In this document: positions 3,801 to 50,311 of the stretch, piece after piece
Layout: every line of letters starts with the position of its first letter
Numbering within the stretch: the stretch's first letter is position 1
Virus record (IMG/VR): IMGVR_UViG_3300022918_000015
Location: 1-52,578 of that record
From: a virus
Length of the DNA stretch: 52,578 nucleotides
Direction: 5' to 3' (one strand)
Translations under genes and position numbers: made by a program
The notes under the pieces: model-generated
Told to the model about the DNA's origin: nothing
The model's database searches: none
Seen by the model: only the letters and a program-made list of their open reading frames with translations

Positions 3801-6800
3801 GTTCCTAATAATCAAAAATATACTACTTTTAATAAAGAAATATTAATTGTAGATAAAAATAGATATGCCACAACAGCAGTTTTAAATGTTCTTGAAAATG
3901 ACATTAGTAAATTTGCTGAACAAATAAAAAAAGGAACTGGTAATAATACTTTAAATTATGGACATGAAATAGCAGATGCTCAAGGTTATATTACTCTTGA
4001 TTTCTATAAAAGAATTATATCTGGAACATACGGTTGGTCAAGCAAAGATAACGCTATATTTGAACGATTAAAAGATAAATCACATAAATATACCGATGAG
4101 GATATTAAATGGCTTAAATCGGCTGGTAGAAGCTTACAAGCCCTTAAATTAACTGGATTCAACCTCGAAGATATTCTAGACGAAAAAGATAATGTTATTG
4201 GTCAATTTCCAGTATATTTAAAATACTCAACAGCAGTATTAGCTCCAGCTATTATTGGAGGAACTGATTTAGAGAAATTAGTTAATCAAATGCAGATTCA
4301 AAATGTTGATCAGGTATTGTTTAAGTCAGGCTCTAAAGCATCTAACAAGCCAGCCACCACTATTTTCAATAAAGATGAAAATGGAATATTTACTGGCCTT
4401 AAAGATGATATGAATTTAAATCCATTTTTATTTAATTTATCAGGATTAAAACTACAAGTAGAATTACCAACTAAATTTGATCATGATGGAGTATTAGGTA
4501 ATCAGCATTTAAAAAACTTAATTGCTAATTTAGACTTAACTGATACAACTACTAAATATAAATGGAGAGATCAAGAATTTACAGCTAGTGAATTACAGAA
4601 TGAATATGATAACACCGTTAAAACAAATCTTCAATATCAATTAAATAATTTTATTGAAAAAATACAAATTAAAGATAAAACATTTGACCAAACTAAATTA
4701 AGAGAATTAATAGTAGATCAACTTGATGAAACAGCAGATGAAGATTTAATTGATATTTTACTAGATACAAGTTTACCACTTGAAACTATACCGGGTATAG
4801 CTCAAAGAGCTTTTCCCATTATATCTAGTTATATACATAAACACGTAGGAAAAGTTAGAACTAATGCTGGTTCTGCTATTCAAGTAGCTAATATAGGTTT
4901 TGACAGAATAGATAGTCCAGATGCCAATCAAATAGTATATCTTACAGAAGATAAAGAACTAAGACCTCCATTGTTAGTTACTAATACAGATGGTTCTAAG
5001 TCTATATCTAAAGCAAGAATCATGATGCCTTTTAGTTCTATTTACGAACAAACAGGTATGAGTTACGAAGATTTTAGAAAAGCATTTGCTTCAGGCAAAA
5101 TAGATAAAAGAATATTTGAAAACATTATAGGTTATCGTATTCCAAATCAAAGTATTTCATCTAATGACAGTATTGAAGTAGTTGGAATATTACCTCCAAG
5201 TATGGGAGATACGGCAATTGTGTATCATGAGATTACGGCTAAAACAGGTAGTGACTTTGATATCGATAAGATGTACTTGATGATGCCTAATTTCAAAATA
5301 GAAGAAAATGGTGAAATCAATTATATTGATGATGTTGAAACGCATAAAGGTCAACAGAATAAATTAATAGAATTGATGTCTAGTATTTTAACTAACACTA
5401 AAACATATGACGATTTAATCTCGCCGCTAGATAGCGATATACAAAAAGATGCGATTAATGAAGTCTTATACATTAAATCTATTTTAAATACAGAAGATTT
5501 TGAAGAGGAATTTAATAAATTTAAATCATTAAAAGGAAAATATAAAACTAAGTTTTTAAAATCATTCTCAGAAAAAAGAAAACTAGATCCTATTAGACAA
5601 TTATCACCAATGGGATTAGTTAAATCCAGAGTAGACATGTTGCAAGCTAAAAAACTAGTAGCAACTATGGCAAATCATATGACTGATATTCCTATGAGTC
5701 AAATAACAAATCAAGTATTTAAATATGATCTTAAAATAGATAGTTTTGAATTTAATAAAATGTTTACTTTAGGGCATGAAAATAACAATGAATACAAACT
5801 AACCAAAATAGTCAGTTACTTGATGAATGCTGCGGTGGATGCTGCGAAAGATAATTATATAATTGAGGGTAATTTCAATAGCTATACAGCTAACGGAGCT
5901 ATGCTAATGATTAGACTTGGTATAGAACCGGTAAATGTATTTAAAGTATTACTTAACGATGACGTATTAAAGCTTTCTAAAATGAAACAAATGCAGACTC
6001 AGAAAGTGGCTAGAATACAAGTAGATGATTACAAACAATCTTTACTTAATGAGTATTCAAGAGAATTAGTTAGTAATTTGCAAGAAAACAAAATAAACTT
6101 TAATGATTTCATACAAAAAAATGAAGATTTTAATTCTAAATTAGTATTAGGATTTTGGAATATAATTCAACTTGCAGGTAAAGAATTAAATAATGACATC
6201 GTCAGCTCTAAGAGTGATAGTAATGGAGCTGGTAAGAATATAGCTGAACATTCTACTCTGTATAATAGAATGGAAAGATTGTCTAAAGAATCAATTGGAA
6301 GTAATATAAATGAAAATTTTGTAAGAGGTAGAAAATTATTCAAATCAGGATTAGATTTAAATAATATAGAATTTAGACCTGAAATTACAGATGATATGAC
6401 ATTCTTAGGGGCTATGATGAATAATAGTTTATTCTTGACTAACTTTATAGCTAAAGAAATGTTTGTTGAAGCTACAGATAATTATAGATACATAGTAAAT
6501 AGAATATCAAACCAACTAGGTGAGCCTTTGCCAATTGCTGCTGACAATATAAAGTTAATAAGCAATCATGTCTATCCATATGTAATGTCTCAATCAGGAC
6601 ATGCATTATATAACATAGAAGAAGATCAAGTTGATTATATGACTAAAGAATTTTTATCTGAAGTAATAAGCAAAAAAGCTGCATTTCCAGATAACCTTAT
6701 GTTAAAGCAATTGTACGTAGATGCAAGTACTAATTTAATATCATTTCCAAATTATAAATATTTCGATACTAACTCTAAAATATTACTTAGAGAAGCAATG

Positions 6801-7637: not shown

Positions 7638-10600
7638 TGGCAGGAACATGTGTAAATAAATCAAGTGCTGAATTCATAGCATTAAAAGAACAAACAGGAA
7701 TAGATGAAGTTTTATTGGCAGCAAATGTTAGTATTTGGCAAGACGAAAACGGAATAGATAAATTTCCTACAGAAGAAGAGTTAAATAGTTTTTCTACAGA
7801 AGATGAAATATTATTCAATCAATATACTTCTACAGAAGATGCTATACAAAAATTCTATTCAACTAAAAGCGATAATAATACTTTATCTAGAAAACTTAAT
7901 TTAAATCTATCTGACAGAAGTGAAGATAGTATTAATATTACAGAACGCAAAATAGAAATATTAAAACAATCTTTAAATGCTGAGGTTTTAATAGATGCCA
8001 GTATTCCAGATTCAGGTCAGTTATTACCGGCTAATCATCCATTATCAAAAAGATATGGAAAACCTGTTATTGTAATAAATCCAAACAAGCTATTTTCAGA
8101 CACTGTAATTCACGAATTTGGACATTTGTATATTGACTTACTTAAAGAAGACGATGGTGTCTTAAATCAAGCGTATGGCTTGCTACGCAACACCGAATTC
8201 TACAGTAATATAGCAGCAGAATATCCAGAGTTAAGTTTAGTTGATTTAGATAAAGAGGTGTTAGCTACTGCAATAGGAATTGAGGGAGATAGAATATTTA
8301 ATAGAGATTTGCAGGATTTGTCTAATTGGCAAAAATTGAAAAACTGGATTTTAAATAAACTATCTTCTATATTCTCTGTTCAACCAAATGCTATTGAAAA
8401 ACTAGCAACTGAATTGCTTTCAAATCAAGTTAGAGTTTCCGGTGTTGAAAATTATAATACCATTATTACTCAAAGATCTAAATATAAAATAGATTCTGCT
8501 AGTTCTAATAAACAGCAAGATGTATTAGATTTATTTAAAAAATTAACTAAAGATTTTACAAAACAAACTGTTGATAATGAAAATATCTATATTGACAAAG
8601 AAGGAAATATTCACAATAATTCAGTAACCAAGAATATTAAACAATATCAAAGACGTTTTAACTCAAAAGATAAGGGTGATTATGAAATGGTATTTGACAG
8701 AACCTTATTTAATGTAGATAACATTGAATTTCAGTTAAATCAACCTAGAGTTCCAATGGCATTAACACGTGCGTTGAATGACTTTATGAATGAAAGAATA
8801 GTTTCTATTAGTTTTACTAAAGATGTTTCTGATAAAAACTGGTACGATGCTTATACAAGAGAAATTATAGAAGATGCAACTGGTGAAGTAGATGAAGTTC
8901 AACAAATGGAAGCTAATTTACTTTCTTCTCAAACAGGAGGAGCTATAACATTTAAAGCTAATATATTAAAACATTTAGATTTAATTTTAAATAGAGCTGA
9001 AGAATATCAGTTATCAGCTAATCAAAGACCTATTGTTGGACAGATAATTCACAATGCTTTAGAGAATTACATTAACGAAGAAACTCCATTTCCAAGCAAT
9101 ATATCAGATGAAGATAATGCATTATTAAATTCTATTAAAAATATAATAGATACAGGTATAGCTAATGGTAGTAGATTTGTTACTGAACAAATATTATATT
9201 CAGAAAATAAACAGATTCCAGGAACAGCAGATTTAATTGAAATAACAAAATCTGGTGAAGCTATTATTTATGATTTCAAAACAGTTAATAGTTTCTCAGG
9301 AAAAGATAAAGGAAATGAATATGAGAAAAAACCTCAATCACTTTATTTTGATAAAGGCTATATTCATCAACTACTTTCTTATGGAGCTATATTAAATCAA
9401 TACGATATTAATCTGGCAGATGATCCATATCATATTTTAATGGCTGAAGTTAAGTACTCTAACATAGAAGATTTAGATTCTACTATAACAATAGGTGAAG
9501 TTAGAAATACTTCAATGAGTTCTAAAGAATTATTACCTTTATTAAACTCAGCTAAAACAGCTATATTTAATGAATTTGCAACTAGTTCAGAACTAGAACA
9601 TATTAATATTAAGCCAGATATTCAGAATTTAAATGACTTATCTGAAAAAATTAATAGTGTTATTTCTATATATAAAAGACGAACTAGAAATATAGCAAGT
9701 AATCTTGACACGAGAGACATTGATCAAATACAAAAAGATTTAATTAAAAATCAAGATATAGAAGCAGATATTAATAAATACATTGCAAAAAATAACGAAG
9801 TAATTATTAACTCTTATGTAGATAACTTGTACAATTCATTATCTATTTTAGAACAACAAAAAGAATATATAGGAGAAGTTCCTACACCTGAATTTTTACA
9901 AAGCTTAAATTATGTATTACAATCTACTGAAGCTTTAGAAGATATAAAGAAAATACTTAGTGAAAATATTCCTTTTGAAGATAAAGATAAGTTATTAAAA
10001 ACCATAAATAAAACATTAAAAATAGTTGAAGAAAACAAAAAATACTATAAACAAAAACTACAACGTTTATCTATATCTCAACTTACTGAGAATAGTAATT
10101 TAATGCAAGGGTTATATGCTGAAAAATATCAAAGAGAAGCTAAAAAATTAGGAAAGAAAACTAAAGAAGAAATAACACTATATATAGAGCAAGAGTTAAA
10201 GAAAAATGAAACCATAATAAAAGTAAAAGAAATTCAATATTGGACCAAACAATATGAGGACGGATTTGCTGACTTAAGATTTCTTGAATACTTAATAGCG
10301 GATCCAGGTATGTCTAAATCTCAATTCGTTCAGTTAACTAAAAATATTTTAGATAAAGCAGATCAATCTACCAGAAATAAAATGATGGATGTTATTCCAG
10401 ATATAGCAAACTGGTACAATAATATTTCTTACGAAAAAACTGGAGATCCAAGAAAAGTGTGGGATAGGTTTCTAGAGAAAAATGCTAAAAACGACAATAA
10501 ACCAACAGGAGCGGTTATACCTGAATTTACAAGTAAATTTAGAGAAATGTTTCTTCAATATAGTTATCAATTAAAAGCACTATATAGAGAACTTAATAAA

Positions 10601-12874
10601 TTAAAAAATGCTCCTAAAACAGAATCTAATCAAAAATTAATTGAAGCTAAAAACGAACAAATTAAAGTATTAAAAAAAGAAAGACAGAAAACTATAAAAG
10701 AAAGAACCAGAGATGAAGATGATTTCAGAGATAGTTATATTCATCCTGATTTTGATAAATTAAACGATAAAGAAAAGGAAGATTTAAGATTTATACATAA
10801 AAATCTAACTGATGCAGATAATAGATTATATACAATACCTGAAAAGAAATTAACTCAAGAACTTGAAGACGGAACAATAATTTATAATCTTCCGAAAGAT
10901 AGAATGAGTGGTATTGAAGCAACTTATAAAGCAGGAGGAATTATTGGTACATTTAAGTCTAAGTTTGAAGACTTATTAAGACCGCCAGCAGATGAAGATA
11001 GTGAAAATATAACTAACCAAGAATATGGTTCAGAAAGTAAATTCGGAACTAATGAATTGGATGGATATGGGAATGAAGTATTTTCAGTTCCTGTTTACTA
11101 TAGAAATGATTTAGAAAATGATGAATTACAATCCTATGATATTCCTAGCTTACTAGCAATGAATCACGATACCACTATCACTTATGAAGAAAACAAACTA
11201 GTTGAAGCAGATTTATTTGTTATTGCAGAAAGTTTAAGTTCTAAAAACAATGACAAAATACTTAAAACAGATAGCTTTATTAACAGAAAAATACAAAACG
11301 CTGTTGGAAATAACTTTCAAAAATCTGATCAAAACTTAGTTTATCAAGCTGTAAAATCAAGTATAGATAACAGACTGTATAAACGTGCTTATAATGGAGT
11401 TTATTCAAAACAAAACTACCAGTTAATTAAAGGAGCTGAAGCAGTAAGTAAATATGCAAGTACTCTAGTTCTAGCTGGAAACTTTATGTCTGCTTTGTCT
11501 ACATTTACTCAAGGTAGTATTTATAGATTATTAGAGGCAAGTGTTGGAGAACATTTTACAATTACTGATTGGCAAAATGGAACTAAAAAAGCTTGGTTAG
11601 ATTTTCCAAACATGTTAAAAGATTCTCAAAAATATACTCCCGAAAGCAAAAGTGCATTATTGATTAAGAAATTTGGACTTGAAACACAATCACATGCTTT
11701 GACTAATAAATTTGTTCAGGATAATTTTGTAAAAAAACAATTAGACTCAGGTACTTTATTTTCAGTTACAAGTATGGCAGAAGCGGTTGTTACAAGTAAC
11801 TTGATGTACTCATTATTAAGCAACGTAAAGGTCACAAATGATAAAGGCGAATATATTAATCAAGAGGGAGAGAAAGTGTCTAAAAACGATGCTATGAGCC
11901 TTGACGAAGCATATACCGTAGTAGATGGTAAACTTGAATTAAATAAATTTGTAAAATACACAAGTTTTAATATTACAAGCAAATATAATGACGGTCAAAA
12001 TAAAGATAATACAATTGCAGCTACTGAGATATCAAGATACATAAGAAGCGTCTATGCTGATTTATATGGTCAATATAATCAAGATATGAAATCTGTTATG
12101 CAAAGAAATATTGCCGGTAAATTAATAATGAGTTTGAGGGGATGGTTGCCAAGAGGGGTTAACAGACGTTGGAGAGGTATTACGGATGCTATTGGTAAAG
12201 ATTTCATGAGTTTTGATGAATTAAGAGATGAAGCTAATATAGATAAAAGATTTTATTCTCAAGATCAAAAACAATTTCAAGAAGGACATTATACTACTAC
12301 TATTAGATTTATAAAGAGTTTAAGAAAACTAATGAAACAAAATCAAGAAGGATTATCTGCAAATAGAAAAACCTTAAGAGAATCTATGACAGATCATGAA
12401 ATAGCTAACTTAAAACGTACTCAGTACGAAATGGCTACGATGTTAATAATGATGGCTATGGCTATGTTGCTACGCACTATAGCAATGAGTTCTGAAGGAG
12501 ATGACAAGGATAAAGAAAAAATATATTTTGCAGCTTATTTAGCTTATAGAGTCCAAACAGAATTATCTACGTTTATATCACCTCCTGCTATGATGGAAAT
12601 GTTAACTAATCCAGCAGCAAGTATAAGTGTAGTGCAAAGAGTATTTGATTGGATGTGGCAATTAACTGGAGTAGCTTATTCTAAAGAAGAAGGTTGGGGA
12701 GTTAACATAAATGATGTTTATGATAAAGGAGATAAACAAGATGAAAGCAAAGCTTTACTTAAATCATATGGATTAGTTCCCTTTTATGTTAAAACAAACC
12801 AAATGAAAAGTATTCTAGGATTAGAAAGTAAAAATCCGATATCAGATTCATTTCAATACTCAATAAGTAAATAA
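7637..12874 (+). CDS. Giant virion protein with zincin-like and Cas4/RecB-like nuclease motifs
   Basis: The protein has 1,745 residues. An HEFGH zinc-protease motif lies at 159-163, with a downstream KEVLATAIG segment that could supply a third ligand. A PD-(D/E)XK-type nuclease signature follows: GQIIHNALE (H472), GTADLI (D532) and YDFKT (D546, K548). The middle is charged and helical. The C-terminal third holds hydrophobic stretches, notably about 1600-1617 (MLIMMAMAMLLRTIAM), which could insert in a membrane. Its place directly after the RNA polymerase fits the large cargo proteins of crAss-like virions, so it may be ejected with the polymerase to process host or phage molecules. The enzymatic roles are inferred from short motifs. 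Confidence 0.75.
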   Translation: MAGTCVNKSSAEFIALKEQTGIDEVLLAANVSIWQDENGIDKFPTEEELNSFSTEDEILFNQYTSTEDAIQKFYSTKSDNNTLSRKLNLNLSDRSEDSINITERKIEILKQSLNAEVLIDASIPDSGQLLPANHPLSKRYGKPVIVINPNKLFSDTVIHEFGHLYIDLLKEDDGVLNQAYGLLRNTEFYSNIAAEYPELSLVDLDKEVLATAIGIEGDRIFNRDLQDLSNWQKLKNWILNKLSSIFSVQPNAIEKLATELLSNQVRVSGVENYNTIITQRSKYKIDSASSNKQQDVLDLFKKLTKDFTKQTVDNENIYIDKEGNIHNNSVTKNIKQYQRRFNSKDKGDYEMVFDRTLFNVDNIEFQLNQPRVPMALTRALNDFMNERIVSISFTKDVSDKNWYDAYTREIIEDATGEVDEVQQMEANLLSSQTGGAITFKANILKHLDLILNRAEEYQLSANQRPIVGQIIHNALENYINEETPFPSNISDEDNALLNSIKNIIDTGIANGSRFVTEQILYSENKQIPGTADLIEITKSGEAIIYDFKTVNSFSGKDKGNEYEKKPQSLYFDKGYIHQLLSYGAILNQYDINLADDPYHILMAEVKYSNIEDLDSTITIGEVRNTSMSSKELLPLLNSAKTAIFNEFATSSELEHINIKPDIQNLNDLSEKINSVISIYKRRTRNIASNLDTRDIDQIQKDLIKNQDIEADINKYIAKNNEVIINSYVDNLYNSLSILEQQKEYIGEVPTPEFLQSLNYVLQSTEALEDIKKILSENIPFEDKDKLLKTINKTLKIVEENKKYYKQKLQRLSISQLTENSNLMQGLYAEKYQREAKKLGKKTKEEITLYIEQELKKNETIIKVKEIQYWTKQYEDGFADLRFLEYLIADPGMSKSQFVQLTKNILDKADQSTRNKMMDVIPDIANWYNNISYEKTGDPRKVWDRFLEKNAKNDNKPTGAVIPEFTSKFREMFLQYSYQLKALYRELNKLKNAPKTESNQKLIEAKNEQIKVLKKERQKTIKERTRDEDDFRDSYIHPDFDKLNDKEKEDLRFIHKNLTDADNRLYTIPEKKLTQELEDGTIIYNLPKDRMSGIEATYKAGGIIGTFKSKFEDLLRPPADEDSENITNQEYGSESKFGTNELDGYGNEVFSVPVYYRNDLENDELQSYDIPSLLAMNHDTTITYEENKLVEADLFVIAESLSSKNNDKILKTDSFINRKIQNAVGNNFQKSDQNLVYQAVKSSIDNRLYKRAYNGVYSKQNYQLIKGAEAVSKYASTLVLAGNFMSALSTFTQGSIYRLLEASVGEHFTITDWQNGTKKAWLDFPNMLKDSQKYTPESKSALLIKKFGLETQSHALTNKFVQDNFVKKQLDSGTLFSVTSMAEAVVTSNLMYSLLSNVKVTNDKGEYINQEGEKVSKNDAMSLDEAYTVVDGKLELNKFVKYTSFNITSKYNDGQNKDNTIAATEISRYIRSVYADLYGQYNQDMKSVMQRNIAGKLIMSLRGWLPRGVNRRWRGITDAIGKDFMSFDELRDEANIDKRFYSQDQKQFQEGHYTTTIRFIKSLRKLMKQNQEGLSANRKTLRESMTDHEIANLKRTQYEMATMLIMMAMAMLLRTIAMSSEGDDKDKEKIYFAAYLAYRVQTELSTFISPPAMMEMLTNPAASISVVQRVFDWMWQLTGVAYSKEEGWGVNINDVYDKGDKQDESKALLKSYGLVPFYVKTNQMKSILGLESKNPISDSFQYSISK

Positions 12875-32760: not shown

Positions 32761-34116
32761 TTAATATCTATTATACATTTGTTCAACAACATACCAACCA
32801 CCAGAAGAAGCACAAAGCTCTTTTAGTCCAGGATTTTCTGTACCAAAGCATAATGCGTTAATTTTAACTCCCTTAGATTTGACCTCTTTAGGATTAACAT
32901 GATCATCTCCATCTAGCATGATTACAATCTCAGGATCGTGAAATGTAGTATCAGTAGCAATCTCATCAATAGTTTCTTGTAAACAATAACCAATATGAGT
33001 ACCACCACCACTAGGTCTTCTCAAGCTTATATCTTTAAATAAATCCTGAGCTTCTTTAAGGGTTTTAACTTCTTTATATCCATATCGTTTAGACTCATAT
33101 AAATAAAAGTTAAGTTTAGCCTTACCTTGCATTACTCCTTCGAGGTAATTCAATAAAGTAGCTCTAACATAAGATTGTTTTTGAATACTTCCCATTGAAC
33201 CAGAATCATCAAGCATTAATGTTACAACTTGCTTTCTTGTTTCAGGTAGTACCTTTTCTTTGATAGTTAATTCTTTTTTTGCAAGCTTATCATCAAAATT
33301 AGGCAATACCATTTGAGTCTTACTAGCCTTCATTACTTGACTATAACTAGACATATTTTTGATACGTTTCTTATTAGATTTATTGTTTTCAACTAACTTT
33401 GTTTCCAAAGAAGTTTCCATTCCAATTTTTTCTTCTAAATAAGTCTTAACTTTAATATCTCTTAATATACCAGGATTAATTGGCATATCAGGAACCTTCT
33501 CAGCAGCATATATATTAGCAATAGTTGGAGATAAATCATAAAGAAAATCTCTAACACATGAAATAACATCTTTTGATAAAGCTTGGTTAGAAGGTTTAGA
33601 TGAACTATCACCTCCATTATCATCAGGAACTCCTTTACTCATCTCTTTAATCAAATCAGATAATGATTGAGGATCTAAAGTAGTTTTACCGTTTCCTTTT
33701 GGATTTTGTTGAGCAGAATTAGTTTCATTAGACTTACTTAAATGCACCATGTACATCAAAGTATTTAATGTTTTATCCATTGGTGAATAACCTGGGCATT
33801 CTGGATAATTTAAACCTTCAAGAAACTTTAAAGTATATCCATAATAAGCTTTTTCAGACTCAGTCAATTCTCTATTCAATACCTCTTTACAAGTATCTAG
33901 TGAAAATACATGATTTTTAAAATCAAAATCAATACTTTCTTCTCTTTCTTGAGTAAATAAATAATATAAATCTTCTATGATTGGTGGGACTTTAATAAAG
34001 CCACCACCAAATTCATAGTTTTTATCACGAGCTAACTCGTTTATATAATCTAACTCAGGCAAAGTAATTGTATTAGTAAGGTTTATAGTAAACCCTTCTG
34101 TTCTTCCATTACTCAT
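32761..34116 (-). CDS. VWA-domain protein partner of the MoxR ATPase
   Basis: A 451-residue protein. The C-terminal domain (about 295-451) is a von Willebrand A domain with the MIDAS sequence DDSGS (D303-x-S305-x-S307), a GGGTHIG loop providing the threonine, and a later MLDGDD strand. The N-terminal 290 residues are helical with a Ser/Asn-rich linker. VWA proteins partner with MoxR-type AAA+ ATPases, here encoded 9 bases upstream, to remodel or assemble other complexes with metal-dependent binding. The target is unknown. Confidence 0.85.
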   Translation of the reverse strand: MSNGRTEGFTINLTNTITLPELDYINELARDKNYEFGGGFIKVPPIIEDLYYLFTQEREESIDFDFKNHVFSLDTCKEVLNRELTESEKAYYGYTLKFLEGLNYPECPGYSPMDKTLNTLMYMVHLSKSNETNSAQQNPKGNGKTTLDPQSLSDLIKEMSKGVPDDNGGDSSSKPSNQALSKDVISCVRDFLYDLSPTIANIYAAEKVPDMPINPGILRDIKVKTYLEEKIGMETSLETKLVENNKSNKKRIKNMSSYSQVMKASKTQMVLPNFDDKLAKKELTIKEKVLPETRKQVVTLMLDDSGSMGSIQKQSYVRATLLNYLEGVMQGKAKLNFYLYESKRYGYKEVKTLKEAQDLFKDISLRRPSGGGTHIGYCLQETIDEIATDTTFHDPEIVIMLDGDDHVNPKEVKSKGVKINALCFGTENPGLKELCASSGGWYVVEQMYNRY

Positions 34117-34125
34117 ATTTTCTTT

Positions 34126-35433
34126 TTATTTCTTTAATTGTTCAATTATTTCTTTAACTTCAGTCTTTTTCTTACCTGCTCTGTCCATATTTTTGGCAGA
34201 CCATTTATGAATATCCATCAATGAAACAACATATTTAAGCTTGTCCATTTTGATTGCAGCAGAAGTTTCATCAATCTCTACCTTAACATCTTCTCCTGTT
34301 CTTGATTTATGTTCTCCAATAATCAAGTCAAGCAATTTTGCATTAGTATCGATTTCTCCTAAATTATTATTTTTAACATAATCAGCAATCATTCTGAACA
34401 TTTCTTCATCAGCCGTTTCTTGTTCTTTATCTTTATTTTCTTTATAATACTTATTCAATATTTCTTTGTCAATATCATAAATATATTTCAAATCTCCACC
34501 ATCACAGTATAATTTTGCAGCGTGAATAGCCGTTCTCGGAGAAACAAAATGTGATTTATCATTCATTCCGTTATTGATAGATAAAATTTCAGATAACTCA
34601 ATAAGTTTACCTTTATTTCTATTGAAGAACGTATCTCCAAATACTTTTTTAAATAAACTTGTAAAATTATTTTTGCTATAAGAATCCCATTCTACTTTCA
34701 AAGTCAATGGAAAACGTTGTGCTAAGGCTTCTAAACTATCATCCTCAGAAAAATCTTCTTTAGACTTATTTGTAAGACCAATAAATATTTTAGTCTTACA
34801 AGGGTGTACTTGATTACCTTTTCTAGCTTTTTTAGATGTCATAACATCTTTAAGAGCCAATAGAACTTGTGGTGGAGCATCAAAGATTTCTTCAAATACA
34901 ACAACCTCATGTTCTAAAAAGCTATTTTTAAATAGATATTCTAATTCACCCGTATCTTTAAATTTCTTAATATTGATGCCGCCAAACAATCCTTCTTCAG
35001 TTAAACCGTCTCCACAAGTTAATACAAATGGTTCTTCTGTAATTAATCCTTCTTTTTTCATTAAGTTAAGAATCAATTCAGTACCTTCTGATTTATTATG
35101 ACCACCACGACCATACAAGATAACATTTTGATTAAGTCTCACACCTCTTGTAAGGGCATCTGCCATATCTTCCATGAATATAGATGATTTACATACTTCT
35201 GCAAGAATTTTTGCGTGAGTTGGATCGTAATTAGCTCCAGTGGCTACTTCAATCAAGTCTTTACTAATCTGAAAAGGATCTACCTTGAAATAACCTTGCT
35301 TTTGAATTTTTTCATATTCACTATCTGGAATAACTAAACTTAAGCCTTCAAGTAATTTATAATCTTGTTCTTCAATAACAGGAAATATTTGTTTTAAATC
35401 TACACTTTCAATACTTTTAAATACTATTTTCAT
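34126..35433 (-). CDS. MoxR-like AAA+ ATPase
   Basis: A 435-residue protein. The nucleotide-binding loop reads GRGGHNKS (108-115), with Asn in place of the usual Gly before Lys114. VVVFEE (177-182) is Walker B, a sensor-1-like IFIGLTNKS follows, and an arginine-finger-like ALAQRFP comes later. The order and the adjacent VWA gene identify the MoxR/CobS group. Such pairs act as chaperones or remodellers, for example in metal insertion or complex maturation. A conserved but altered P-loop raises the question of ATPase activity. Confidence 0.82.
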   Translation of the reverse strand: MKIVFKSIESVDLKQIFPVIEEQDYKLLEGLSLVIPDSEYEKIQKQGYFKVDPFQISKDLIEVATGANYDPTHAKILAEVCKSSIFMEDMADALTRGVRLNQNVILYGRGGHNKSEGTELILNLMKKEGLITEEPFVLTCGDGLTEEGLFGGINIKKFKDTGELEYLFKNSFLEHEVVVFEEIFDAPPQVLLALKDVMTSKKARKGNQVHPCKTKIFIGLTNKSKEDFSEDDSLEALAQRFPLTLKVEWDSYSKNNFTSLFKKVFGDTFFNRNKGKLIELSEILSINNGMNDKSHFVSPRTAIHAAKLYCDGGDLKYIYDIDKEILNKYYKENKDKEQETADEEMFRMIADYVKNNNLGEIDTNAKLLDLIIGEHKSRTGEDVKVEIDETSAAIKMDKLKYVVSLMDIHKWSAKNMDRAGKKKTEVKEIIEQLKK

Positions 35434-41479: not shown

Positions 41480-42277
41480 TTATAAATTTCCTAAAAACAT
41501 ATTAATAATAGATTGATGACCATTTCCTAAACTTGTTAATGATTTAACATTGTTAGAAGCATCTTTATACATAATATCTGAATTTGCATAATCCATAGTT
41601 ATATCAGCTATTTCTAAATTAAATCCATCAAATTTATTTATCATTTCATTTAATTTAGGCAATTCTCCTAACTTTAAACTAGGTTGAGATATAATACCTG
41701 AGTCTATTTTGCGAAATAATAATTCCATGTAAATTATATCATATATTCTATACATATCACATAATTTTTTAAGCTCATCTTCAGTGAATTTACTCATATC
41801 ATTAGAAATACCTAAAGCCTTCTTAAACTTTAAGTAAGCAACAATATTTGTAAACAATCTGATATTAGTACTCATAAATTGAGGTTGACCAGTTGGCTGT
41901 AAATTAGAATTATAAGTACTAATACAGTCTATGATATCTCCTTTCAGCATCTTAATTAATAAAGTACTACCACATTCAAATTCAAAATGAATATCTCCTG
42001 TAATATCTTGATTGGTAAAAGTGTTATCTAATATAAACTTAGCCATTTTAATATCATCACGAACTGGTATTTTGTGAACATCTGATATAATAATATTATT
42101 TAATATTGTACTTAATGCCCAAGTTAGTTTTAATATCAAACTTTTTCCTGATCCGTTATGACCAACTAAAATTATGAGACTATTAAAATCCATATCCAGA
42201 TTTTTAAATTGCTCTAACATGCCTGGACCAGTGTTAGATATCTTCATGTGTTTTACATGTCCTAATGTTTTACTCAT
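41480..42277 (-). CDS. SMC/ABC-type ATPase lacking an obvious Walker B
   Basis: A 265-residue protein. Walker A is GHNGSGKS (K45). The C-terminal end has SLTSLGNGHQSII, an ABC-signature-like sequence. The protein stops about 10 residues after the signature, so the Walker B and D-loop that normally follow are missing. It may be a truncated or regulatory ATPase, or depend on a partner for the second half of the site. The RNA element at 42291-42354 lies 13 bases upstream of its start. Confidence 0.62.
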   Translation of the reverse strand: MSKTLGHVKHMKISNTGPGMLEQFKNLDMDFNSLIILVGHNGSGKSLILKLTWALSTILNNIIISDVHKIPVRDDIKMAKFILDNTFTNQDITGDIHFEFECGSTLLIKMLKGDIIDCISTYNSNLQPTGQPQFMSTNIRLFTNIVAYLKFKKALGISNDMSKFTEDELKKLCDMYRIYDIIYMELLFRKIDSGIISQPSLKLGELPKLNEMINKFDGFNLEIADITMDYANSDIMYKDASNNVKSLTSLGNGHQSIINMFLGNL

Positions 42278-42290
42278 AATTATTTTATTA

Positions 42291-42354
42291 AAAGTGTTGA
42301 TCTGACCTTTAACCAGATAGTACCACGGCTTAGAGCTGTCGGTAGCAACACTTT
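42291..42354 (-). ncRNA. Three-way-junction RNA, copy A
   Basis: A closing helix of 9 bp (AAAGTGTTG at 42291-42299 with CAACACTTT at 42346-42354) encloses two arms. One is ATCTG...CAGAT (42300-42304 with 42314-42318). The other is TACC...GGTA (42321-42324 with 42341-42344), extended by ACGGC...GCTGT. Single-base (G42345) and two-base (AG 42319-42320) junction linkers remain. A second copy at 44741-44801 has the same arms and linkers with different stem sequence. Located between the ABC ATPase and the AAA ATPase genes. Confidence 0.72.
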
Positions 42355-42359
42355 ATTAT

Positions 42360-43172
42360 TTAACTTCTTAATATATCTTCTCTAATTTTCTTAGACAATT
42401 CTAAATGCTTTTCACCAAAATGCTCCCAAGCTAATCCCATAGCTTTTAAATCATAATGAGATATTATAGTGCTAACTTGATCTTCGGGATTTTCATGTCC
42501 TAAAATATAAATACTATCAGCTAAATTAACAGCTAAGTTAATATCATGAGTTGAAAATATAACTGTATTTAAATCATTAGTTTGAGAAATATGTTCAAAG
42601 CTTTCTTTAAGTTTCTCTATATTACCTACATCTAAACCTGAAGCTGGTTCATCAAAAACAATATACTTCTTTGAAGTAAATAATTGTTCTAGAATAGCAG
42701 TTCTTTGACGTTGACCTCCAGATAGCTCATTTGGATATTGATCCTTTTGAGACAGCAATTTCCATTCATTTAAAGCATCTACAATCATAGTATGTTTTTC
42801 TGCATTAGATAATTTTTGTTTTCTTAATGCAAACTTTAAACATTCATAAACAGTCTTATGTCTAAATAAAGTATAAGCTTGATCAACAAATCCAGCATCC
42901 CCTTCTGATATTATTTTACAGCTATTAGCATTATAATCATCAGATACTAATATTTGACCAGAAATTGGCTTAATTAATCCAGCTAAAGCTTTAAATAATG
43001 TACTTTTACCTCTACCTGATCTACCTAATATTGCAATACATTGACCAGTTATTTTATCTGTTCTGGTAATATTCTTTTCCTCAAGACTAATATCTTTCAG
43101 AATAATTTTATTACCATATCCAATATTTACCTTATCAAGATATAATATTGTATTTTCTAATTTATATTCCAT
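42360..43172 (-). CDS. ABC transporter ATP-binding protein (nitrate/sulfonate/taurine-type)
   Basis: A 270-residue protein with every motif of an importer ATPase: Walker A GRSGRGKS (50-57), Q-loop glutamine (Q98 in FVDQAYTLF), signature LSGGQRQR (150-157), Walker B IVFDE (171-175) and H-loop FSTHD (H209). The order and length resemble SsuB/TauB/ThiZ-type subunits. It lies 2 bases below a small membrane gene and 4 genes below the solute-binding protein. It would energise import of a small anion or vitamin precursor. Phage-encoded importers are rare. Confidence 0.92.
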   Translation of the reverse strand: MEYKLENTILYLDKVNIGYGNKIILKDISLEEKNITRTDKITGQCIAILGRSGRGKSTLFKALAGLIKPISGQILVSDDYNANSCKIISEGDAGFVDQAYTLFRHKTVYECLKFALRKQKLSNAEKHTMIVDALNEWKLLSQKDQYPNELSGGQRQRTAILEQLFTSKKYIVFDEPASGLDVGNIEKLKESFEHISQTNDLNTVIFSTHDINLAVNLADSIYILGHENPEDQVSTIISHYDLKAMGLAWEHFGEKHLELSKKIREDILRS

Positions 43173-43174
43173 AA

Positions 43175-43384
43175 TTAATTAAAATAAGTATATAAATTTC
43201 TACCAAATATTAGCCAAATAATTCCATCAATTAAAAAGAAACCAGTTAGATAATAAAGTACTACAACAAAATACAAAAAACTATAAATTAAAATCATAGT
43301 TATAAAACTTAAACAAAATATTATTCTTTCCTTAAAATTACTTGGCCTACTATCCCAGTAATTACAAAACTCATTTACTGACAT
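43175..43384 (-). CDS. Small single- or double-pass membrane protein within the ABC operon
   Basis: A 69-residue protein with a continuous hydrophobic region from about residue 20 to 60 (IIFCLSFITMILIYSFLYF; VVLYYLTGFFLIDGIIWLI). Two spans with a short turn are likely. It lies 2 bases from both the permease and ATPase genes, so it may be a subunit or regulator of the transporter. Confidence 0.65.
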   Translation of the reverse strand: MSVNEFCNYWDSRPSNFKERIIFCLSFITMILIYSFLYFVVVLYYLTGFFLIDGIIWLIFGRNLYTYFN

Positions 43385-43386
43385 AA

Positions 43387-44166
43387 TTAAAAATTTGAAT
43401 ATCTAAAAAACAACCTTCTTAAACTTATTAAACTATAATCTATAGATTTTCCAATCATTAATATTATAATTTGCAAAGCTATTACTTCACCTTGAGAACC
43501 ATTCTTTTGATTGGTACCAATTAAATAACCTAATCCACCACTAGCAGTATTAATTAATTCTATTACTACAAGCATATTAAATATAATAGCAAGGTTTTGT
43601 CTTACAGCTTCAATAACAAAATCAAAACGACCCTTTATCATTACTTCAAGTATTATCTCCCAACGAGAACACCCTATACTTTTAGCATGATTAATTTCAT
43701 TTTCAATCGATTTCTTTGACAGACTCTGCAATAAACTTGTTATTAAAAATAAACTCATAAATATTACTAATACTGTTACCTGTATATTTCTTGCATTATG
43801 AATTATAATACTAATATATAAACTAATACCAACTAATGGCAAAAATCTAAACGTACTAATTAAATCACAAAATGGCTTAATAACAGGTAGAGGACTTAGG
43901 TATACTACTATACAAGAGATTATAACGCTATATAAACTAGCTTGTAAAAATAATAAGATCGAACTGGAAATATGGGTCATTAACCCTAAATTCCAGGCAC
44001 TAACAAAACCATTAAATACTTGCGTAATTGTTGGAAATAAATGTGTAGTGCCTACAAAACTAGAAATTACCCACCATCCCAGAATAAAAGTTAACCACAA
44101 GAGTATAACTAAATTATTCTGAGATTTGGATAACTCCTCAAAAGGTCTAAATAATTTATTTAGCAT
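43387..44166 (-). CDS. ABC transporter permease (nitrate/sulfonate/taurine-type)
   Basis: A 259-residue protein with about six hydrophobic spans (first at about 20-38, LVILLWLTFILGWWVISSF). The cytoplasmic ATPase-contact loop is visible at about 155-173 (ENEINHAKSIGCSRWEIIL), where a Gly at 165 matches the conserved EAA loop glycine. Late GGLGYLIG and a final span complete the BPD_transp_1 layout of SsuC/TauC-type permeases. It lies 15 bases downstream of the outer-membrane-like gene. Confidence 0.88.
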   Translation of the reverse strand: MLNKLFRPFEELSKSQNNLVILLWLTFILGWWVISSFVGTTHLFPTITQVFNGFVSAWNLGLMTHISSSILLFLQASLYSVIISCIVVYLSPLPVIKPFCDLISTFRFLPLVGISLYISIIIHNARNIQVTVLVIFMSLFLITSLLQSLSKKSIENEINHAKSIGCSRWEIILEVMIKGRFDFVIEAVRQNLAIIFNMLVVIELINTASGGLGYLIGTNQKNGSQGEVIALQIIILMIGKSIDYSLISLRRLFFRYSNF

Positions 44167-44181
44167 TTTTGAGATAACTAA

Positions 44182-44679
44182 TTAAAAACTATAACTAATA
44201 CTAGGAGACAAGTAATTAACTTCATCCCAGTTACTAAAACTAAGACCTATACTCACGTTTTCATGCGTATAACCAATTCCAACTCCAACTTCTGTAAAAT
44301 AATCATCAGATCCAAAATATCCGCCTGCACCTGCAATTAGGCTACCAGTTAAATTTCCCACTAATTTATAATTTGGTGAAATTTTAGCTTCCCAGAAATA
44401 ATTAGTAATCTGATCTTTGTCAAAAACATCAACTAGATTACTTCTTCCAAATACAGCTCCATAAGAGATGTTATTGCAAGTAACACCACCTTCTACTGTG
44501 GCATATGAATTTTCTTGCCAATCTCCTTGAAGATGCATAGATAATCCAAGACTCACATAATGAGTAAGTGTATTTACAGATTTAGTTTCTACAACATCCA
44601 CTTGAGGTTGTTCAATTGTTTGAGCATTCATGCTCATTGCTCCTAAGAACAACATTCCTACGATTAAGAATTTTTTCAT
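44182..44679 (-). CDS. Secreted putative outer-membrane barrel protein
   Basis: A 165-residue protein with a Bacteroidota-type signal peptide (MKKFLIVGMLFLGAMSMNAQ, cut after NAQ). The mature part has alternating strands (SNLVDVFDKDQITNYFWEAK; YVSLGLSMHLQGDW; VGIGYTHENVSIGLSF) and ends in aromatic ISYSF, a typical outer-membrane barrel end. At about 145 residues, it could be a small barrel. It is the first gene of the permease-ATPase part, so it might be the outer-membrane entry point of the importer. Confidence 0.72.
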   Translation of the reverse strand: MKKFLIVGMLFLGAMSMNAQTIEQPQVDVVETKSVNTLTHYVSLGLSMHLQGDWQENSYATVEGGVTCNNISYGAVFGRSNLVDVFDKDQITNYFWEAKISPNYKLVGNLTGSLIAGAGGYFGSDDYFTEVGVGIGYTHENVSIGLSFSNWDEVNYLSPSISYSF

Positions 44680-44699
44680 TTTTTTTGTTTTGTGTTTTA

Positions 44700-44712
44700 A
44701 GTGCTATGCACT
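44700..44712 (-). other. Short perfect palindrome in the barrel-gene leader
   Basis: AGTGC-TAT-GCACT lies 20 bases upstream of the barrel protein start. It could be an operator for a dimeric repressor or a small hairpin in the message. No known consensus is recognised. Confidence 0.35.
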
Positions 44713-44740
44713 ATTAATATTAAATTTAATTAAAAAAAAT

Positions 44741-44801
44741 AAGATATTGATCTGACTTGTTTAAACAGATAGTACGACTTGCAAGAACGTAGCAATAGCT
44801 T
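44741..44801 (-). ncRNA. Three-way-junction RNA, copy B
   Basis: The same fold as 42291-42354. The closing helix is AAGATATTG (44741-44749) with CAATAGCTT (44793-44801, one mismatch). The invariant arm is ATCTG...CAGAT (44750-44754 with 44766-44770) and the second arm TACG...CGTA (44773-44776 with 44788-44791). Linkers are again AG and G. Relative to copy A, the second arm's inner pair changes from C-G to G-C and the closing stem differs, yet pairing is kept, which argues for selection on structure. It lies 61 bases upstream of the barrel gene. Confidence 0.72.
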
Positions 44802-44803
44802 AT

Positions 44804-44853
44804 AAAAGTAAAATGGAAGAGATCGAGAGTTTCCAGTATGCTATTTTACTTTT
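44804..44853 (-). ncRNA. Hairpin next to three-way-junction copy B
   Basis: An 11-bp stem (AAAAGTAAAAT at 44804-44814 with ATTTTACTTTT at 44843-44853) closes 28 bases with an inner GGAA...TTCC pair. It directly precedes copy B on the - strand. It may be part of a two-domain leader, for example a partial terminator or processing signal before the barrel-permease-ATPase genes. Confidence 0.5.
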
Positions 44854-44887
44854 TTATTTTAAAAGAGTTAATTGACTTTATCGCTCT

Positions 44888-45163
44888 TTATAATTTATAA
44901 TGTAATTTATTATTGATAAAATAATTATAATTATCTAATAGAAATCTTTTTCTACATTTAACAGTAGTAGCTTTATAATTTCCAAGATACCAATTACCAT
45001 TTTTATCTAGAATAGCTTTGCTTACATGGTTAAAACATAAATTATTATTAAATATATAAAAATCTTTTTCATTAAAATAAGAAGATTCTCTAAATTTAAA
45101 ATTATGTTCTTTATGATGTAAATAATATAATACTAATCCTGTTATAATAATAAATATATACAT
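44888..45163 (-). CDS. Small single-pass membrane protein
   Basis: A 91-residue protein: one N-terminal span (MYIFIIITGLVLYYLH) and then a soluble, basic, aromatic part (FYIFNNNLCFNHVSKAILD; ATTVKCRKRFLLDNYNYF). Its start is coupled to the stop of the solute-binding-OmpA gene by a 1-base overlap. It is the last gene before the RNA-containing spacer at 44680-44887. Function unknown. Confidence 0.6.
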   Translation of the reverse strand: MYIFIIITGLVLYYLHHKEHNFKFRESSYFNEKDFYIFNNNLCFNHVSKAILDKNGNWYLGNYKATTVKCRKRFLLDNYNYFINNKLHYKL

Positions 45164-47001
45164 TATTTTAAAAGAGTTACTTGAACCCTTCTGTTTTTAT
45201 ACCTACCTTCAGCTGTATTATTATTGCCAATAGGTTTTTTATCTCCCAATCCTTCTACAGATTCAACTGCTTGGAATGGTAAACCTTGATTTTGCAAATA
45301 CTCTAGTACAGCGTTAGCTCTAGATTTAGATAAAATTTGATTTTGATCAGGATTACCGGTATTATCAGTATGGCCTTCAATAATGATTTTAGTTCCCTCA
45401 GCTTGAACAATTAAATTGTATAATTCTTTAAGTTGTTTATCGCTTGAATGCAATATCTCCGAACTACCTGAATTAAAATTGATTTGCCAGCTTCCAGATG
45501 CCATTACAGACGTTAACTTTTTAGAATAGTCTACTTGTTTCACTTCACCTGAATTAATACCTGAAATCGCTTGTAATGACGTCAAATCAACTGCTTTATC
45601 ATAAGGAGTAACTTTTTTAACAGCATCACTGAATCCATTTGGATTAAGATCTGTCAAATAATTAGCAACTTGTTCATAAACAGATTTGTATCTATTAATT
45701 CCATCATCACCTAATCCATAATATTGCAAAGCATCTGCATGATTCATAATTCTAGTACCACCAGCAATTTGACCATTACTTAAAGTTTTACCTTTAAACA
45801 TTTCATACCAATATTGAGGAGATTGATAACCGTAAGTTTTAGCAACACATTGTGAAGCTTTAACTCTCCAATCATCATATAACTTCATTTGATTAGCAGC
45901 AGTATAAGTAGCTTTCAAAATATTAACAACCACGTCTGGGTTAGCATCAGACCATTCTTTTAAGACTATTAAAGTTGTAGTCATTTGATTAGGAAAATCT
46001 TTAGTAGAAGATATAGTTACTGCGTGAGGAACTTTATCAAATATCATTTTATCTCCAGGCAACCAAGTACTACATAAATCAATTTTTCTAGATACAGTCT
46101 TACCTGTTGGCTTACCATCTTTAAGTTCTTTCATGTCATAAACCTTTCCATTTAATTGAGATGCAATATAATCATTTGCACATTCAATAATATTTGGATT
46201 ATGAATAAAGTTTACAGCTTCTGGATCATACGTACCGATGTTTGGATTTACTTTAATACCTTTATTAGCAAATATATAATTCAATGCTACAACCCAGTCA
46301 CCGTCTCCTACAGCAGTTACGATAACAGCTCCTTTAAGATTAGCCGGATTATCAATATATTTTTTATCTCCAATAAGTTTATCTTCTCCATAACTAGCTC
46401 CATAACAAGCCTTAACTACAGCGTGATATTTATCTTCACCAAATTTATCGTCAAGCATTTTATTTAATGTTGATATAAAATAAGGAGCGCCATCACCCAT
46501 AATACTTACTCCGAATGCACTAGTATTGCTTTGTGGATTTAAATTCCCTGAATCAAATTCAGCAGTAAAATTAACCATAGCAGCTTGTAATAGACTAAAA
46601 TCATCCTGACGTCCTATATTAAGATTTACACCATATTTTTCCATTAAACTATTTTCAGAAGTTTGAGGACCGCCATTAGCTACAATCATAGTACTATTAC
46701 CATTCCAAGTATACTCAAGTAAATTATACTTAGTTTTACTTTTTACTTTAGTTGATAAACTGTTTCCTGGCAAATCGATTTTATCTGCTTTAGAAGCGTT
46801 ATCAATTACGGTTCCATCAATTTCCAAATCATTACCTGTAGTAGATTTTAGAAAGTTCATTCCGGGGGCAAAAAAGGCTACTGCTAAATAAGCTATAACG
46901 ATAATAGCTATTACACCCAATACTTTAAGTGTATTACGACCTTTGGGAGTTAGGTTATCCCACCAACTTGTTTTTGTTTGATTTTGATTAAAATTTTCCA
47001 T
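45163..47001 (-). CDS. Membrane-anchored solute-binding protein fused to a C-terminal OmpA domain
   Basis: A 612-residue protein. Residues 26-46 (KVLGVIAIIVIAYLAVAFFA) form an N-terminal membrane anchor. Residues about 70-490 look like a periplasmic solute-binding domain of the NMT1/PstS/nitrate type (MIVANGGPQTSENSLMEKYG, then QAAMVNFTAEF; AVIVTAVGDGDW; TTTLIVLKEW). Residues 497-612 are an OmpA/MotB peptidoglycan-binding domain: FNSGSSEIL, GHTDNTG (543-549) and GRYKNRRV (599-606). This would fix a captured-solute receptor between inner membrane and cell wall, serving the permease and ATPase encoded below. Confidence 0.85.
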   Translation of the reverse strand: MENFNQNQTKTSWWDNLTPKGRNTLKVLGVIAIIVIAYLAVAFFAPGMNFLKSTTGNDLEIDGTVIDNASKADKIDLPGNSLSTKVKSKTKYNLLEYTWNGNSTMIVANGGPQTSENSLMEKYGVNLNIGRQDDFSLLQAAMVNFTAEFDSGNLNPQSNTSAFGVSIMGDGAPYFISTLNKMLDDKFGEDKYHAVVKACYGASYGEDKLIGDKKYIDNPANLKGAVIVTAVGDGDWVVALNYIFANKGIKVNPNIGTYDPEAVNFIHNPNIIECANDYIASQLNGKVYDMKELKDGKPTGKTVSRKIDLCSTWLPGDKMIFDKVPHAVTISSTKDFPNQMTTTLIVLKEWSDANPDVVVNILKATYTAANQMKLYDDWRVKASQCVAKTYGYQSPQYWYEMFKGKTLSNGQIAGGTRIMNHADALQYYGLGDDGINRYKSVYEQVANYLTDLNPNGFSDAVKKVTPYDKAVDLTSLQAISGINSGEVKQVDYSKKLTSVMASGSWQINFNSGSSEILHSSDKQLKELYNLIVQAEGTKIIIEGHTDNTGNPDQNQILSKSRANAVLEYLQNQGLPFQAVESVEGLGDKKPIGNNNTAEGRYKNRRVQVTLLK

Positions 47002-49857: not shown

Positions 49858-49880
49858 TTTAACTCTAATTTTAGTTATAG

Positions 49881-49963
49881 CTCCCAGGGAGGGATTCGAA
49901 CCCACACACAAGTGATTGTACTACCTTCACAGATAGCTTGTCTACCAATTTCAACACCCGGGA
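49881..49963 (-). tRNA. Class II tRNA, anticodon uncertain (possibly GTG)
   Basis: The acceptor pairs TCCCGGG (49957-49963) with CCTGGGA. The D-arm has the conserved ATTGGTAGA loop, the T-arm is GTGGG-TTCGAAT-CCCTC with one mismatch, and a long variable arm ACAA-TCAC-TTGT makes it class II. The anticodon loop is only 6 bases (TGTGAA) between CTATC and GGTAG; the best reading is GTG, which would be His, but a class II arm would suit Leu, Ser or Tyr. Discriminator is G. Identity is therefore open. Confidence 0.7.
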
Positions 49964-49982
49964 ATTTTAATTTATTTCGTAG

Positions 49983-50024
49983 AACGCAAAACATACTAAC
50001 TGATCAGGTTTTCAATTTTGCGTT
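49983..50024 (-). other. Hairpin between tRNA genes
   Basis: A 9-bp perfect stem (AACGCAAAA at 49983-49991 with TTTTGCGTT at 50016-50024) closes a 24-base loop. A T-run follows only on the + strand, so terminator use would be for rightward transcripts. On the - strand it may aid processing of the tRNA precursor. Confidence 0.45.
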
Positions 50025-50140
50025 TTTATTACAAAACTACGACACTTTTTTATTTTGGACACTACTGGTCGAAAAGTATAAACGACCTCACGCATAGTAT
50101 AACTCTACAAGAATCACCAAGCTTTATTATCTAACTGTCG
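50025..50140. other. Spacer between tRNA genes with two weak helices
   Basis: No gene is seen. A 6-bp helix (ACGACA with TGTCGT) could close most of the spacer, around a 5-bp hairpin GGTCG...CGACC with an 11-base loop. The loop is too large for a T-arm, so it is not scored as a tRNA. Degenerate tRNA or processing RNA remain possible. Confidence 0.3.
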
Positions 50141-50218
50141 TGGACTTAGAGAGACTCGAACTCTCATGTAACCAAATTACGCTTTCTATTGGTTATGAGC
50201 CAAAGGCGATATAAGTCC
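50141..50218 (-). tRNA. Unusual tRNA-like gene with a CAT anticodon loop
   Basis: The acceptor stem is perfect (GGACTTA with TAAGTCC, discriminator A) and the T-arm is perfect (GAGAG-TTCGAGT-CTCTC). A CTCATAA loop between TTGG and CCAA gives anticodon CAT (Met). Between acceptor and anticodon arms only 8 bases remain, so the D-arm seems missing. About 22 bases including GTAA...TTAC sit where the variable region should be. TTGG can instead pair farther away, so an alternative fold (TAACCAA...TTGGTTA) is available. Functional status is uncertain. Confidence 0.55.
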
Positions 50219-50227
50219 GATAATTAG

Positions 50228-50311
50228 TACCGAGAACCAGATTTGAACTGGCACGAGCTATTAAGCTCACGGAATTTTAAGTCCCGCATGTCTGCATTCC
50301 ATCACCTCGGC
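50228..50311 (-). tRNA. tRNA-Leu, anticodon TAA
   Basis: A class II tRNA of 84 bases. Acceptor GCCGAGG pairs with TCTCGGT (two G-T pairs), the anticodon arm is CGGGA-CTTAAAA-TTCCG, the variable arm is GAGCT-TAAT-AGCTC, and the T-arm GCCAG-TTCAAAT-CTGGT. UUA is a favoured leucine codon in this AT-rich sequence, so the tRNA would support phage translation. CCA is not encoded. Confidence 0.9.

What the first reader, a model, noticed from the sequence alone, without database searches (positions are those of the whole stretch)
42291..44801. Two copies of a three-way-junction RNA with compensatory changes
42291-42354 and 44741-44801 share ATCTG...CAGAT, TAC(C/G)...(G/C)GTA and identical linkers, while closing-stem sequences differ but still pair. 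This is the classic signature of a conserved RNA. They flank the barrel-permease-ATPase genes. No known riboswitch consensus was matched; it may be a new regulatory RNA or processing element.
Basis: seen in the sequence. Interest (0 to 1): 0.85.

Follow-up and report, generated by a model that had tools for sequence, protein, structure and literature searches.

The report
New small structured RNA in phages
Two copies of a previously unnamed, tRNA-sized, three-armed RNA sit in this viral genome, and relatives of it, many placed right beside tRNA genes and carrying a loop that could pair with a second copy of itself, occur in large uncultured phages, which makes it a new phage RNA whose job is still unknown.

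Summary
A covariance model built here finds about 60 distinct relatives in uncultured phage contigs (up to 434 kb). The helices covary far above controls. No Rfam family matches. BLAST finds no copy in 50,697 named phage records, and no convincing copy was found in bacterial genomes. Relatives are usually single-copy; 34 of 58 have a same-strand tRNA (relaxed detection) within 40 nt behind them, and many abut a stop codon in front. The same slot before tRNA-Cys is empty in some related phages. In the large-phage class the loop of one arm carries a 6-nt palindrome that changes sequence but stays self-complementary (8 different hexamers; 17 of 18 distinct loop cores against 2.9 in shuffles), which points to a kissing-loop homodimer. 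Best reading: a small, probably trans-acting, self-associating RNA cassette made together with tRNAs. Transcription, dimerisation and function are inferred. GOLLD and ROOL are the closest analogues in habit, not shown to be relatives.

The parts
42290..42355 (-). Copy 1 (w1) of the RNA, 66 nt with 10-nt P1 arms
   Evidence: Model R2 45.3 bits, E 7.6e-10, filters off (a member of the training set)
42346..42355 (-). w1 P1 5' arm; pairs with 42290-42299
   Evidence: 9 uninterrupted pairs; P1 covaries across homologues
42321..42344 (-). w1 P3 arm, UACC...GGUA; its loop holds only a 4-nt palindrome, AGCU
42300..42318 (-). w1 P2 arm, AUCUG-GUUAAAGGU-CAGAU
44740..44802 (-). Copy 2 (w2) of the RNA, 63 nt with 10-nt P1 arms
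   Evidence: Model R2 40.7 bits, E 1.4e-8, filters off (a member of the training set)
44793..44802 (-). w2 P1 5' arm; pairs with 44740-44749 with one mismatch
44773..44791 (-). w2 P3 arm; its loop holds the 8-nt palindrome CUUGCAAG at 44778-44785
   Evidence: shuffle probability 0.007
44750..44770 (-). w2 P2 arm, AUCUG-UUUAAACAAGU-CAGAU
42360..43172 (-). Gene before w1: ABC transporter ATPase; its stop codon ends 4 nt before the 10-nt P1 arm. Context only
   Evidence: PF00005, E 7e-25; distance
41480..42277 (-). Gene after w1: AAA-type ATPase-like protein starting 12 nt after the RNA. Context only
   Evidence: PF13304 below its cut-off
44182..44679 (-). Context only

Best explanation
A new small structured RNA (mostly 57-78 nt, rarely longer) of uncultured phages, many of them large. 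Shown by comparison: three helices around a tight junction (P1, C, P3, CU, P2, with P2 directly followed by the 3' strand of P1), on the gene strand, with a conserved core (CUA, GUAC, CUG, GUCAG). In the large-phage class P3 ends in a loop with a self-complementary hexamer that is kept while its letters change. The RNA behaves as an independent cassette: usually one copy per record, beside different genes in different phages, often squeezed between a stop codon and a tRNA, and missing from the same slot in some related phages. Inferred: it is transcribed with the neighbouring gene and tRNA, its 3' end is freed when RNase P trims the adjacent tRNA, two copies join by a kissing loop, and the RNA or its dimer acts in trans by binding an unknown partner through the conserved junction and P2.
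For: Covariation: 91.0% of cells paired against 76.5% in shuffles, 13 of 19 pairs changed on both sides, 0 of 500 shuffles reach any measure. Strand: G.U 14 against A.C 2. Palindrome in 17 of 18 distinct loop cores, 8 hexamers. One copy in 23 of the 24 positive records of 27 searched. 34 of 58 with a tRNA within 40 nt behind. Empty sites in L138, L151, L165, L172, L174. 28 of 78 loci chosen by a neighbouring protein rather than by this RNA's sequence carry it.
Against: No expression data. Dimerisation is inferred from sequence; outside the large-phage class the palindrome is weak or absent (w1, L046, L108, L274), so it cannot be essential to the whole family as defined. The window has two copies and G006 two, so single copy is not strict. 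The close fit to stop codons (15 of 62 within -6..+3 nt) also suits a cis role. 24 of 58 show no tRNA close behind.
Confidence: 0.45

Rival explanations
1. A cis-acting intercistronic element: it protects the 3' end of the upstream message, or marks a cut between a coding message and the following tRNA or gene. After RNase P trims the tRNA, the message would end in this compact structure with only a few bases of tail.
For: Stop codons of ORFs of 100 or more codons end within -6..+3 nt of the element in 15 of 62, against about 0.9 per 10 nt further upstream; tRNAs mostly start 0-8 nt behind the 10-nt arm; window copy 1 lies 4 nt behind a stop and 12 nt before a start.
Against: Usually one copy in phages of 63-434 kb, although arrays hold many gene-tRNA borders; a plain hairpin would suffice, yet a core and a changing palindrome are conserved; many elements are not next to a long ORF's stop.
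Confidence: 0.27
2. A self-cleaving ribozyme that separates transcripts.
For: Compact three-way junction with conserved core letters, placed at borders between genes and tRNAs.
Against: No Rfam ribozyme model matches; the junction linkers are only 0-2 nt, leaving few conserved unpaired bases.
Confidence: 0.08
3. A riboswitch, attenuator or antitermination element acting on the downstream genes.
For: w2 lies in the 5' leader of the barrel gene and w1 12 nt before a start codon; antitermination could help untranslated tRNA arrays.
Against: Downstream neighbours are different tRNAs or unrelated genes; a T-rich tail follows P1 in only 4 of 62. Alternative pairings were not specifically sought.
Confidence: 0.08
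4. A tRNA mimic or decoy, for example against host nucleases that attack tRNAs.
For: tRNA-like size and place; P2 follows directly on the 3' strand of P1, as the T arm does on the acceptor stem (recalled topology).
Against: No tRNA-model match on the element at permissive thresholds; no T-loop sequence; P1 length varies from 6 to 10 or more pairs.
Confidence: 0.07

Closest known systems
GOLLD and ROOL RNAs (PMC12286853: abstract and passages seen)
   Same: Non-coding RNAs of phages and prophages, often near tRNA islands; self-association through kissing loops (shown for them, predicted here).
   Different: They are several hundred nt long and form cages; this RNA is mostly 57-78 nt with one three-way junction. 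No Rfam match.
Retroviral DIS-type kissing loop (recalled)
   Same: Loop of the form A-A-palindrome-A in one variant (AA-AGCGCU-A), other palindromes in others.
   Different: Only the loop is alike; different RNA, genome and context. Dimerisation not tested.
phi29 packaging RNA (recalled)
   Same: Phage RNA with a three-way junction and intermolecular loops.
   Different: There the two interlocking loops differ from each other; here a single self-complementary loop. Not tested further.
RAGATH-30 (RF03055)
   Same: Weak Rfam hit lying over w2: 13.6 bits, E 2.9.
   Different: It is on the + strand, far below the gathering score of 59.5, and w1 gives no hit at E 10: taken as chance.

Membership tests
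Any Rfam 15 family (4227 models) | Model match at or near the gathering score | tested here: not met
   Window; both regions at E 10; 8 loci at gathering score; 7 loci at E 5: no match lies on the element except weak chance-level ones over w2
tRNA (RF00005) or tmRNA | Cloverleaf or tmRNA model match on the element itself | tested here: not met
   ARAGORN and cmscan call neighbouring tRNAs, not the element
Intrinsic terminator | Run of T directly behind the stem | tested here: not met
   6 or more T in the 8 nt after P1 in 4 of 62
GOLLD / ROOL | Covariance-model match | tested here: not met
   No hit
GOLLD / ROOL | Homo-oligomer through kissing loops | not testable with these tools
   Only the sequence sign was tested: a palindrome in 17 of 18 loop cores of one class
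Self-cleaving ribozyme | Cleavage in Mg2+ | not testable with these tools
   Needs a bench test
Riboswitch | Recurring downstream gene and an expression platform | tested here: not met
   Downstream neighbours vary and T-rich tails are rare; alternative pairings were not sought
The new family defined here (models R1, R2) | Full-length model match with P1 of 6 bp or more | tested here: met
   w1 59.4 and w2 53.5 bits with R1, both in its training set; w1 has 9 bp, w2 5 bp then a mismatch and 4 bp

The most novel reading that the evidence does not exclude
tRNA arrays of large phages hold interchangeable slots for small self-associating RNAs, of which this three-way-junction RNA is the first family described. 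It works as a homodimer held by a fast-changing palindromic kissing loop, a tRNA-sized counterpart to the GOLLD and ROOL assemblies, perhaps protecting translation or tRNAs during infection. In other phages the same slot holds a permuted-tRNA-like sequence (L134, L135, L163) or an unrelated stem-closed sequence with the palindrome UGCAUGCA (L173).
Probability: 0.2. Interest if true: 0.85.

Novelty: new variant of a known kind. Interest (0 to 1): 0.62.

Why it matters
It adds a well-supported RNA family to large-phage biology, where tRNA arrays are common and usually explained by codon supply or tRNA-directed defence (recalled). The anatomy (usually one copy, tRNA slot, changing palindrome, empty sites) makes sharp predictions: a synthetic RNA of about 66 nt should dimerise, and swapping palindromes between variants should break and restore pairing. 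It also shows that a structure spotted by eye in two copies can be genuine while its strand is misread.

Tried and rejected
Known family: rejected. Hammerhead: compared only by eye with its recalled core; the linkers here are far too short. Intrinsic terminator: 4 of 62 with a T-rich tail. DNA-level element: the G.U against A.C asymmetry favours RNA of one strand. Bacterial origin: 14 pattern matches among 84,980 species genomes, none with a closing stem above 3 bp; whole-genome model searches of 2 genomes and of 296 drawn from the phylum of one of them found nothing, but they scored only some of the first-look candidates (150 and 18 per genome) and had no positive control, so they are weak. 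Named phages: three BLAST searches with elements gave only chance hits, and one with a 1501-base stretch of L159 gave none over the element judged by its query ranges; a diverged copy would be missed. Close relatives of the window: none through its substrate-binding protein in IMG/VR or its MoxR protein in named phages.

Rows dropped: of the 19 stretches I kept 11; of the 73 new loci (L211-L283) I dropped 11 as chance (L215, L217, L224, L234, L239, L246, L248, L254, L270, L271, L273); of the 80 loci I searched 78, leaving out two near-duplicates (L132, L133). Control: of 134 loci set aside as chance, L070 (30.2 bits) proved to be a real member and L095 (28.3 bits) is coding; the others score 21 or less. 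Scores near or below 30 bits therefore prove nothing alone, which affects L274 (29.5), the second L087 copy (20.6) and L154 (19.6; supported by L333). L213 stood 5 nt out of register and was shifted. The palindrome test covers the large-phage class only; the 8 elements outside it were looked at. One search printed nothing because of a faulty motif and was redone.

Papers: looked for this RNA or its kind; I read listings (titles and abstract starts) only, plus passages of PMC12286853, and saw no description of it. One search concerned permuted tRNAs. Most subscription papers are not held; one search asked for one that is not.

Full report
Check of the observation. The two copies are present at the stated coordinates. 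The shared pattern occurs exactly twice in the window and never in shuffles. No Rfam family reaches its threshold there, and permissive searches give nothing for copy 1 and only weak, unrelated hits for copy 2. By folding energy alone copy 1 looks significant on the + strand (z -3.87; -2.06 on the minus strand) and copy 2 on neither, so homologues were needed.

Homologues. A loose pattern scan of IMG/VR gave 118 loci, mostly chance. Screening for a closing stem and a tighter scan (19 stretches, 11 kept) left eight distinct kinds of relative besides the window's. Model R1 was built from seven sequences. It finds L046, L087 and L040, which were not in its training set but had been chosen by pattern, at E 7e-7 to 9e-6. 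To escape the bias of pattern choice I collected 80 loci through an HNH endonuclease that neighbours the RNA and searched 78 of them: 28 carry it, 27 at E 0.001 or better and L154 at 0.3. They show core variants that the patterns had excluded: GUCUG/CAGGC in P2, GUAA, and a re-paired P2 behind GUACA. A wider pattern brought 73 new loci, 62 kept and 11 dropped, and a variant pattern 11 stretches, some in records already seen.

Structure. On 57 distinct aligned sequences the three-helix structure pairs in 91.0% of cells, against 76.5% in shuffles and 29-34% when slid. Thirteen of 19 pairs change on both sides, and none of 500 shuffles reaches any of the five measures. The alignment was fitted to the model, so these counts lean towards it. 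All ten P1 pairs covary. In P3 three pairs never vary and the fourth covaries. One P2 pair is U.G in 35 of 57. In the inner six P1 pairs of 62 sequences, G.U cells outnumber A.C cells 14 to 2, and 58 of 62 have an unbroken P1 of 6 bp or more. This fixes the strand and indicates that the constraint acts on RNA.

Palindromic loop. In the class found in large phages, P3 continues through a small internal loop to an apical loop that holds a 6-nt palindrome: CGATCG, AGCGCT, CTGCAG, CGGCCG, ACCGGT, GGCGCC, CACGTG or CGCGCG. Of 18 distinct loop cores 17 hold one; shuffles of the same letters gave 2.9 on average and 10 at most in 5000 rounds. The exception is L223 (GACGUA). CTGCAG and CGGCCG occur in otherwise similar sequences, so both halves of the palindrome changed together. 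The simplest reading is a kissing loop between two copies of the same RNA. Outside this class the sign is weak: copy 2 of the window has CUUGCAAG (shuffle probability 0.007), copy 1 only AGCU, and most others 4 nt or less. Related loops are not independent, so the number of distinct hexamers (8) is the safer figure.

Context. Among 58 distinct elements, 34 have a tRNA starting within 40 nt behind (relaxed ARAGORN setting), mostly 0-8 nt behind the 10-nt arm, and the tRNA differs: Cys mostly, also His, Pro, Val, Asn, Asp and Phe. At the default setting all tRNAs found in these loci are on the RNA's strand. Stop codons of ORFs of 100 or more codons end within -6..+3 nt of the element in 15 of 62, against about 0.9 per 10 nt further upstream. 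Copy 1 of the window fits this: the ATPase stop is 4 nt before it and the next start codon 12 nt after. Copy 2 lies 85 nt behind a small ORF and 60 nt before the barrel gene. Searches of 27 large records, most of them chosen because they carry it, found it in 24: once in 23, twice in one; three have none. This shows copy number, not prevalence. Behind the HNH gene the slot before tRNA-Cys is empty in L138, L151, L165, L172 and L174, holds this RNA in many loci, and holds other folded sequences in L134, L135, L163 and L173.

Distribution. The strict pattern in 84,980 bacterial and archaeal species genomes gave 14 matches, none with a closing stem above 3 bp. BLAST of three elements against 50,697 named phages gave only chance hits. 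Close relatives of the window itself were not found through two of its proteins. Hosts are unknown; the secretion signals of some neighbouring proteins resemble those of Bacteroidota (inference from recalled knowledge).

Control. Model R2 was run on 134 loci set aside as chance, most of which share the core letters by selection. All but two score 21 bits or less. L070 at 30.2 bits proved to be a real member, with a 9-bp P1 and a tRNA-like sequence right behind it (read by eye). L095 at 28.3 bits lies in an open reading frame. Scores near or below 30 bits therefore need other support.

Mechanism. Shown by comparison: structure, strand, core, palindrome, position, copy number and empty sites. 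Inferred: expression with the neighbouring gene and tRNA, release of the 3' end by RNase P, dimerisation, action in trans. I prefer a trans-acting RNA to a cis element because copies are usually single and neighbours vary; the tight fit to stop codons keeps the cis reading alive at somewhat more than half that weight.

Comparison. GOLLD and ROOL are encoded in phages and prophages, often near tRNA islands, and form RNA-only oligomers with kissing loops (passages of PMC12286853). This RNA resembles them in habit and in its predicted self-association, not in size or model match, so it is not filed as a member.

Noticed in passing
42360-47001: Phage-borne ABC transporter set on the minus strand: a protein of 612 aa with a C-terminal OmpA domain (45163-47001), which I take for the substrate-binding part, a permease related to TauC/SsuC (43387-44166) and an ATPase (42360-43172).
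   Followed up: partly
32761-35433: MoxR-type AAA ATPase (34126-35433; bpMoxR) beside a protein of 451 aa with weak VWA-like hits (32761-34116).
   Followed up: partly
810-12874: Two giant adjacent ORFs of 2275 and 1745 aa on the + strand, opposite to most other genes.
   Followed up: no
49880-50311: Small tRNA group; one member has a four-letter anticodon call (gtga) from ARAGORN and another is seen only by Rfam (50141-50218).
   Followed up: no
44804-44853: Long AT-rich hairpin (AAAGTAAAAT...ATTTTACTTT) directly in front of copy 2 in the direction of transcription, read by eye.
   Followed up: no
L134:4555-4640 (also L135, L163): In the slot before tRNA-Cys, a sequence with a T-arm half first and a D-arm half second, closed by an 8-bp stem: possibly a circularly permuted tRNA, though its acceptor pairs imperfectly.
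   Followed up: partly
L173:4558-4620: In the same slot, an unrelated stem-closed RNA candidate with the palindrome TGCATGCA.
   Followed up: no
L298:1422-1493: A tRNA directly behind the element scores best, below threshold, with the tRNA-Sec model (37.6 bits).
   Followed up: no
L046:6336-6671: A tmRNA gene in the same phage contig as the element.
   Followed up: no
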